Source: Halieaceae bacterium
Lineage (GTDB): Bacteria > Pseudomonadota > Gammaproteobacteria > Pseudomonadales > Halieaceae
Assembly: GCA_016744355.1 (NCBI GenBank)
Contig: JADGEN010000002.1
Span: 1 to 64,000, forward strand
Direction of reading: 5' to 3'
Length of the DNA stretch: 64,000 bases
Numbering within the stretch: position 1 is the first letter of the stretch; every line of letters starts with the position of its first letter. The notes under the pieces were generated by a model, which saw only the letters and a program-made list of their open reading frames with translations, did not search any database and had not been told where the DNA came from. The position numbers and the translations under genes were made by a program. Positions 7,801 through 9,073 of this stretch are shown piece by piece.

Positions 7801-8463
7801 ATGACAGGCGAACCAAATTTGTTGCTTGTTCGGATAGGAGAAGTACTCAGCTATCTTGCTGGTGTGCTTTTTGTCGGTTTTTTTGTGGTGCAGCTTGCAC
7901 AGGGTGAGATTCAACGCCGCGAAGGCGTCGCCCAATTTCCAACTGATCCAACCCCTGCAGACATTGCTAAAATCTCCGAATTTGGCGCACCCGATACAAC
8001 GCTATGGGCACCCGGACGAGTATCCGACTATGAGTCCAGCCTCAATGCAGAATTACCTCCCGTTCTTGGCGTACTAAAAATTCCTTCTGTAGGGCTGGAA
8101 GTTCCCGTCTACCCATCAGATTCAGAATTACTTATGGACCGCGGGTCAGGTGTTATCGACGGTATGTCTTACCCTCACGAGCCCGGAAACATAGGTATCG
8201 CAGGGCATCGCGACGGTTATTTCAGGTCGCTTAAAGACGTACGGGCAGGAGATAAGATTTTTCTGCAAACCCTTGAAGGCCCCAAACAATTTGTAATCAA
8301 TGCCACAGAAATCGTGGAAATTGATGACCTTAGTTTGCTTCAGGATACTCAAGAGCAGTCTGTAACATTAGTAACTTGCTACCCATTTTATTTTGTCGGA
8401 CATGCGCCCCAGCGATTTATCGTGACTGCGTCGCTCGACATAACCAGTGTCAATCAACACTAA
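7801..8463 (+). CDS. sortase (class D-like) of a Gram-negative bacterium
   Basis: 220 residues. One transmembrane segment near the N-terminus (about residues 10-32) anchors the enzyme with its catalytic part in the periplasm. The sortase beta-barrel begins at PPVLGVLKIPSVGLEVPVY. The three catalytic residues are visible: His136 in GIAGHRD, Cys193 in TLVTCYPF and Arg205 in APQRFIV. Sortases cut a C-terminal sorting motif and join the freed carbonyl to an amine. The gene ends one base before the ribosome binding site of a single small protein with a sorting signal, so it is very probably a dedicated enzyme-substrate pair. An AGGGGAT element at 7782-7788 precedes the ATG with rather long spacing. 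Confidence 0.92.
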   Translation: MTGEPNLLLVRIGEVLSYLAGVLFVGFFVVQLAQGEIQRREGVAQFPTDPTPADIAKISEFGAPDTTLWAPGRVSDYESSLNAELPPVLGVLKIPSVGLEVPVYPSDSELLMDRGSGVIDGMSYPHEPGNIGIAGHRDGYFRSLKDVRAGDKIFLQTLEGPKQFVINATEIVEIDDLSLLQDTQEQSVTLVTCYPFYFVGHAPQRFIVTASLDITSVNQH

Positions 8464-8477
8464 AAGGAGGAGTTGAC

Positions 8478-9032
8478 ATGAAAAAGAAGCTAGTAGTAGG
8501 AATAGGTTTTGCGTTATCGCTGGGCATGGGTCAAGCAATGGCTCAGGATGCTGCACCAACTTGTGCCGACCTGAATTGGTCTGCAGAAGTATTGGCATCT
8601 AACCCTGATATCGCGCAAAGCTGTAAAGGCGTGTATGAGAAAAATGGCGAGTTGTACGCCAAGGTTTCGATTGAGGTTATCCGTGTACGCGGTAACCGCA
8701 TGACCTTCCGTCCCATGCACACTGACGGCAGTAAAGGTGACAGCCGTAGTATCGTTCTGGACAACAGCTTCCGTGCAGAAATTGGTGGTCGCGAGTATCG
8801 CGCCAGCGACCTGATGCGTGGACAAGAGCTGAATGTCTACATGCCTCAAGATCGTTTTGCTCTGGCAGTTGAAGACGCAGACGGCCCTGACGCTGCAGAC
8901 ATGGTGGTTATCGAGGAAGAGATGGTTGAAATGCCCACTACCGCGAGCCCACTGTTCATGATTGGCCTTCTCGGTGGTGCATTTGTAGCACTGGGTGGCA
9001 TATTGAGTGGAATTCGTCGTCGTTTGGCGTAA
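8478..9032 (+). CDS. secreted sortase substrate with C-terminal MPTTA sorting signal
   Basis: 184 residues. A Sec signal peptide (MKKKLVVGIGFALSLGMG, probable cleavage after AMA near residue 23) is followed by a mature domain of about 125 residues with two cysteines (CADLNW and AQSCKG) and no family I recognise. The C-terminus is a classic three-part sorting signal: MPTTAS at residues 152-157, a glycine-rich hydrophobic span, and a basic end (IRRRLA). MPTTA is close to the LPXTA motif used by class D sortases. The start has a near-perfect AAGGAGG at 8464-8470, overlapping the end of the sortase gene, and suggests strong translation. A terminator follows at once. The function of the displayed domain is unknown. 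Confidence 0.9.
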   Translation: MKKKLVVGIGFALSLGMGQAMAQDAAPTCADLNWSAEVLASNPDIAQSCKGVYEKNGELYAKVSIEVIRVRGNRMTFRPMHTDGSKGDSRSIVLDNSFRAEIGGREYRASDLMRGQELNVYMPQDRFALAVEDADGPDAADMVVIEEEMVEMPTTASPLFMIGLLGGAFVALGGILSGIRRRLA

Positions 9033-9050
9033 TTCTTACTTAATATAATC

Positions 9051-9073
9051 AAGGGGCTTAGGCCCCTTTTTTT
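9051..9073 (+). terminator. intrinsic terminator of the sortase operon
   Basis: AAGGGGC (9051-9057), loop TTAG, GCCCCTT (9062-9068), then a run of T to 9073. This is a perfect 7-bp GC-rich stem followed by a U-tract, 18 bp after the substrate gene stop. It closes a two-gene unit. Confidence 0.92.

What the first reader, a model, noticed from the sequence alone, without database searches (positions are those of the whole stretch)
7801..9073. Dedicated sortase-substrate pair with an MPTTA signal in a Gram-negative bacterium
The sortase (His136, Cys193, Arg205 visible) sits one base from an ideal ribosome binding site for a 184-residue secreted protein. That protein's C-terminus is a complete sorting signal: MPTTAS, hydrophobic span, IRRRLA. 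A terminator closes the unit. MPTTA is near the LPXTA motif of class D sortases. Gram-negative bacteria lack the thick wall in which sortases usually act, so the nucleophile that receives the protein, and the membrane or peptidoglycan it ends up on, are open questions. The displayed domain matches no family I know.
Basis: partly seen in the sequence, partly recalled or inferred. Interest (0 to 1): 0.75.

Follow-up and report, generated by a model that had tools for sequence, protein, structure and literature searches.

The report
Gram-negative sortase with one dedicated substrate
A family of marine Gram-negative bacteria carries a two-gene unit in which a protein-anchoring enzyme (a sortase, usually known from Gram-positive bacteria) sits beside its only visible substrate; in relatives that lack the enzyme gene, the substrate has also lost exactly the tail the enzyme would cut, which is strong evidence that the two genes work together.

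Summary
At 7801-8463 lies an intact sortase (His136, Cys193, Arg205 invariant in homologues) and, 14 bases on, a 184-residue exported protein ending MPTTAS, a hydrophobic span and IRRRLA, with an intrinsic terminator behind. All 35 homologous substrate genes with a sortase directly upstream carry an [ML]PxTAS tail; all 15 without an adjacent sortase end after the domain with no motif, hydrophobic span or basic tail. One orphan fusion is the exception. Several tailless genes sit at the same chromosomal site, and one flanking-gene tree rejects a single origin, so sortase and signal were probably lost together at least twice. In 12 genomes a profile of the tail finds only these genes. The sortase is nearest class D but scores below the curated class cut-offs, and it is clearly not the known Gram-negative class (GN), which related genomes often carry separately. 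The substrate domain matches no named family; a modest model suggests a small OB/SH3-like barrel. Best reading: cleavage between Thr155 and Ala156 and transfer to the m-diaminopimelate amine of periplasmic peptidoglycan, as for Bacillus anthracis class D sortase. The pairing is well supported; cleavage site and acceptor are inferred. Surface display is not supported.

The parts
7801..8463 (+). class-D-like sortase, 220 aa, N-terminal membrane anchor (about residues 12-33), catalytic His136/Cys193/Arg205
   Evidence: PF04203 E=8e-25; NF058671 117.3 bits (cut-off 140), NF033746 107.4 (165), GN 71.4 (158); catalytic residues invariant
8465..8470 (+). AGGAGG ribosome-binding site of the substrate gene, one base after the sortase stop codon
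   Evidence: read directly; most relatives have a gap of about the same length
8478..9032 (+). sortase substrate, 184 aa
   Evidence: homologues in 43 of 140 genomes of the family and in 4 genomes from other families of the order; no Pfam family
8478..8546 (+). signal peptide of the substrate (about residues 1-23)
   Evidence: KKK, hydrophobic stretch and AMAQ cleavage-like site, read directly; the aligned N-terminus keeps this pattern
8547..8876 (+). mature domain (residues 24-133), conserved Cys29 and Cys49, predicted small beta-barrel
   Evidence: AlphaFold2 pLDDT about 80-90 in residues 41-120; weak OB-like matches, best Z 5.0
8931..9029 (+). C-terminal sorting signal MPTTAS + hydrophobic helix + IRRRLA (residues 152-184)
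   Evidence: P153, T155, A156, S157 invariant in 16 diverse homologues; present only in genes with an adjacent sortase, one exception
9051..9068 (+). intrinsic terminator closing the unit
   Evidence: 7-pair stem with T run

Best explanation
This is a dedicated, operon-encoded sorting system. The substrate is exported by its signal peptide and held at the inner membrane by its C-terminal helix. The membrane-anchored sortase cuts between Thr155 and Ala156 of [ML]PxT-AS through Cys193, forming a thioacyl intermediate, and transfers the approximately 130-residue mature protein to an amine in the periplasm. The acceptor is most likely the m-diaminopimelate side chain of lipid II or nascent peptidoglycan. 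The product would be a small disulphide-stabilised beta-barrel protein on the periplasmic cell wall, not on the cell surface. Shown here: gene pairing, signal conservation, coupled presence and absence, one substrate family per sortase. Inferred: cleavage site, transfer, acceptor, location and disulphide. What the domain does is unknown; a structural or ligand-binding role at the wall is a guess.
For: Sortase directly upstream in 15/15 loci. Tail present in 35/35 genes with an adjacent sortase and absent in 15/15 without, one orphan exception; tail hydropathy confirms. Several tailless genes lie at the same site between the same flanking genes; no sortase remnant there. A flanking acyltransferase tree rejects one tailless clade, AU p=0.0014. 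A tail profile finds only these genes in 12 genomes. Tail codons show purifying selection, pN/pS 0.17, near the domain's 0.13. B. anthracis class D sortase cleaves LPNTA between Thr and Ala and uses m-Dpm as acceptor (PMC3297441); that m-Dpm is also the peptidoglycan diamino acid of proteobacteria is general knowledge.
Against: No biochemistry. The acceptor could be something other than peptidoglycan, or water. Tailless orthologues persist as predicted soluble proteins, so anchoring is not needed for whatever the domain does in those lineages. The orphan L089 keeps a signal without an adjacent sortase. The substrate-gene tree (AU p=0.27) and the epoxide-hydrolase tree (p=0.33) do not exclude a single loss event. 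The sortase model was poor (pLDDT 50), so the active site was not checked in three dimensions.
Confidence: 0.65

Rival explanations
1. The sortase works mainly as a release protease: it cuts the tail and water resolves the intermediate, freeing the domain as a soluble periplasmic protein, perhaps in a regulated way.
For: Tailless orthologues at the same site are predicted soluble periplasmic proteins, so a soluble form is evidently viable.
Against: If the soluble form were the only end product, tail and sortase would be pointless; yet both are kept under purifying selection.
Confidence: 0.17
2. The sortase joins the substrate to another molecule: to itself as a short polymer, to another protein, or to a lipid or polysaccharide that may reach the outer membrane.
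For: Class C sortases polymerise pilins, and in a tree the single class C sequence falls next to this clade, on a long branch. The L003 and G034 genomes have two substrate copies in tandem.
Against: The substrate is one small domain with no evident pilin motif or isopeptide domain; the nearest class by profile is D, not C. No third partner gene is conserved in the operon.
Confidence: 0.13
3. The two genes are neighbours by chance or history, and the tail is an ordinary C-terminal membrane anchor.
For: A hydrophobic helix with arginines is also a plain tail anchor, and no processing has been measured.
Against: Invariant P-x-T-A-S among homologues down to about 30% identity, near-perfect association with the sortase, and joint absence at the same site.
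Confidence: 0.05

Closest known systems
Bacillus anthracis class D sortase (called SrtC or SrtD) with BasI and BasH, motif LPNTA(S)
   Same: Nearly the same motif (LPNTAS, PMC4498605), nearest sortase class by profile, srtC and basI in one operon (PMC3208642); an m-Dpm acceptor is described there (PMC3297441) and is expected to be available here.
   Different: Gram-positive spore former; the sortase here is below the class D cut-offs; the substrate domain matches no named family; Leu is replaced by Met in the window's branch.
Class GN sortase (TIGR03784) with marine proteobacterial sortase target protein (vault/von Willebrand A type)
   Same: Gram-negative, dedicated adjacent pair, the only LPXTG example in its genome (PMC3237569); example with an LPQTG tail in L121.
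   Different: Separate sortase clade (support 100); the window's sortase scores 71 bits against a cut-off of 158; PxTAS instead of LPxTG; small substrate instead of a large target; related genomes often carry a second sortase, and the ones tested are GN.
Gram-positive plasmid class D pairs (Priestia L116, L119)
   Same: Small secreted protein of about 177 aa with an LPETAS or LPKTAT tail next to a class D sortase.
   Different: Substrate is upstream of the sortase; the class D sortases tested (L115, L116) pass the class D cut-offs.
Rhombosortase/GlyGly-CTERM and exosortase/PEP-CTERM
   Same: Same three-part tail logic in Gram-negatives (PMC3237569, PMC1569441).
   Different: Unrelated enzymes and motifs.

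Membership tests
Sortase superfamily (PF04203) | Profile match above the gathering score, with catalytic His, Cys, Arg | tested here: met
   87.4 bits vs 26.6; residues invariant
Class D sortase (NF033746, NF058671) | Score above the curated cut-off | tested here: not met
   107.4 vs 165 and 117.3 vs 140; three members from elsewhere also fall short, the best at 137.1 vs 140
Class D sortase (NF033746, NF058671) | Groups with reference class D sortases in a tree | tested here: inconclusive
   Own clade (support 85) beside class D and one class C sequence; few references
Class D sortase (NF033746, NF058671) | LPxTA-type sorting motif in the neighbouring substrate | tested here: met
   [ML]PxTAS in 16 diverse homologues
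LPxTATN sorting signal (NF058670) | Score above the curated cut-off | tested here: not met
   16.4 bits vs 32
Class GN sortase system (TIGR03784) | Score above the curated cut-off and a vault/VWA-type target | tested here: not met
   71.4 vs 158.25; substrate matches no such family; GN clade separate with support 100
Class D-type anchoring | Transfer of the substrate to m-diaminopimelate of peptidoglycan | not testable with these tools
   needs mass spectrometry of the mature protein

The most novel reading that the evidence does not exclude
A second, independent kind of Gram-negative sortase system, in which a class-D-like sortase covalently fixes one small, previously unnamed beta-barrel protein to periplasmic peptidoglycan, a fate so far associated in proteobacteria mainly with Braun-type lipoproteins and other L,D-transpeptidase products (last clause from general knowledge).
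Probability: 0.5. Interest if true: 0.65.

Novelty: new variant of a known kind. Interest (0 to 1): 0.52.

Why it matters
What sortases do in cells with a thin wall and an outer membrane is an open question. This system is a clean test case: one enzyme, one small substrate, at most one other sortase gene in most genomes, and natural relatives in which both enzyme and signal are gone. Named strains in the collection carry it (Seongchinamella, Pseudohalioglobus, Parahaliea, Halioglobus).

Tried and rejected
Class GN membership: rejected by score and tree. A named family for the domain: none in Pfam or above cut-off in NCBIfam for the window protein, and no PDB sequence match; two distant members touch a KOW (SH3-like) model weakly. 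Fold search: no Foldseek match at E<=0.001; the structure aligner gives only middling OB-like matches, Z 5.0 or less (eIF5A/EF-P), which may be just a common arrangement. Sortase structure: model too poor to use. Wider spread: in a class-wide sample of 321 genomes only the window's own had the domain; in a phylum-wide sample of 349 only one other genome, of the same order, had this sortase at E<=1e-30. A single loss event: not rejected by the substrate-gene and epoxide-hydrolase trees, rejected by the acyltransferase tree. Viral contigs: alignment too diverse for the scan. Literature: no paper in the held library mentions both sortase and Halieaceae.

Full report
The observation. The window carries a sortase ORF at 7801-8463 and a second ORF at 8478-9032, read from the ATG that follows AGGAGG. 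The sortase matches PF04203 well above the gathering score. The substrate has a signal peptide, a domain of about 110 residues, an acidic linker and the tail MPTTASPLFMIGLLGGAFVALGGILSGIRRRLA. A terminator-like hairpin follows at 9051-9068.

Relatives. A scan of 84,980 species genomes with the substrate found 15 loci, titled as Halieaceae genera or simply as gammaproteobacteria. In all 15 the sortase gene lies directly before the substrate. MPTTASPLF is shared by 15 of 17 aligned sequences; the window has the same nine residues and one sequence has MPSTAS; invariant columns in the second alignment confirm M152, P153, T155, A156, S157, P158, L159 and F160. In the family-wide search 43 of 140 genomes hold the domain and 62 of 140 hold some sortase. 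In a sample of 294 genomes of the order, four members from other families appeared, all with the sortase next door.

The natural control. Homologues of the domain fall into two groups. Thirty-five genes with a sortase directly upstream (one is the second copy of a tandem pair) all carry [ML]PxTAS, a hydrophobic span and arginines. Fifteen genes without an adjacent sortase end shortly after the domain and have no motif; the greatest 19-residue hydropathy in their last 45 residues is 0.13-0.89 against 1.46-2.15 in the tailed group. The one exception is L089, a 374-residue orphan in a genome that also holds a normal pair. Several tailless genes lie between the same neighbours as the pairs (epoxide hydrolase-like on one side, a 109-residue conserved gene on the other), so this is the same locus minus the sortase and minus the signal. 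No sortase remnant was found there. Because members in other families of the order have the pair, the pair is probably ancestral. A parsimony count on the substrate tree gives three changes, but that tree does not reject one tailless clade (AU p=0.27). Of two flanking genes, the acyltransferase rejects it (p=0.0014) and the epoxide hydrolase does not (p=0.33), although the latter places L071 and L073 with tailed loci at support 96. I therefore claim at least two joint losses with moderate confidence only.

Dedication. A profile of the tail alone, searched in 12 genomes, gives strong hits only at these domain genes, the orphan L089 included; the next best hits are at chance level. The window's assembly is about 94% complete, so an undetected second substrate is possible but unlikely given the complete relatives.

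Selection. In ten close pairs, mean pN/pS is 0.17 for the tail, 0.13 for the domain and 0.30 for the linker; the motif residues use several synonymous codons while the residues stay fixed.

Which sortase. The window's sortase scores best against the LPxTATN class D model but below its cut-off, and all 16 close members match that model. Members from elsewhere come closer (137.1 of 140). In a tree with six class D, one class C and several GN sequences, the group forms its own clade (support 85), apart from GN (support 100). The three other sortases from family genomes that were scanned are genuine GN by the curated cut-off. I describe the window's enzyme as class-D-like, not as class D.

Mechanism. 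B. anthracis class D sortase cuts LPNTA between Thr and Ala and uses m-Dpm as acceptor (PMC3297441), and is reported to prefer LPNTAS (PMC4498605); its gene shares an operon with a substrate (PMC3208642). With the same motif type, and m-Dpm as the diamino acid of proteobacterial peptidoglycan (general knowledge), the simplest reading is cleavage after Thr155 and attachment to periplasmic peptidoglycan. Export by a signal peptide in a Gram-negative leads to the periplasm by default (PMC3297441); nothing here implies passage through the outer membrane. Two conserved cysteines fit an oxidising periplasm.

The domain. No named family. AlphaFold2 from 17 sequences gives pLDDT near 80-90 in the core with a small beta-barrel, weakly like OB domains. 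Function unknown; I make no claim about function from the fold.

Novelty. Dedicated Gram-negative sortase pairs were described for TIGR03784 (PMC3237569). This one differs in sortase lineage, motif and substrate, so it is a new variant of a known kind.

Noticed in passing
L089:3445-4569: Orphan fused homologue (374 aa): the domain and an LPKTAS signal are followed by a second hydrophobic segment and a further domain-sized stretch, with no sortase next to it.
   Followed up: partly
L003:6001-7168 and genome G034 contig C121: Two substrate copies in tandem behind one sortase; in L003 both were seen to carry intact tails.
   Followed up: partly
window:7669-7730: A near-repeat upstream of the sortase (AACTGGAATGTAC... 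/ AACTAGAATGTAC...); several relatives share an ACTAGAATAT-like element there, perhaps a promoter or regulator site.
   Followed up: partly
L090:2935-4314 and L091:2528-3900: Diverged second subfamily of the pair (LPTTAS tail, substrate about 30% identical), in genomes that also hold another copy of the domain.
   Followed up: partly
L088:1928-3771: The homologue in genome G053 is split over two reading frames, either a frameshift or a sequencing error.
   Followed up: no
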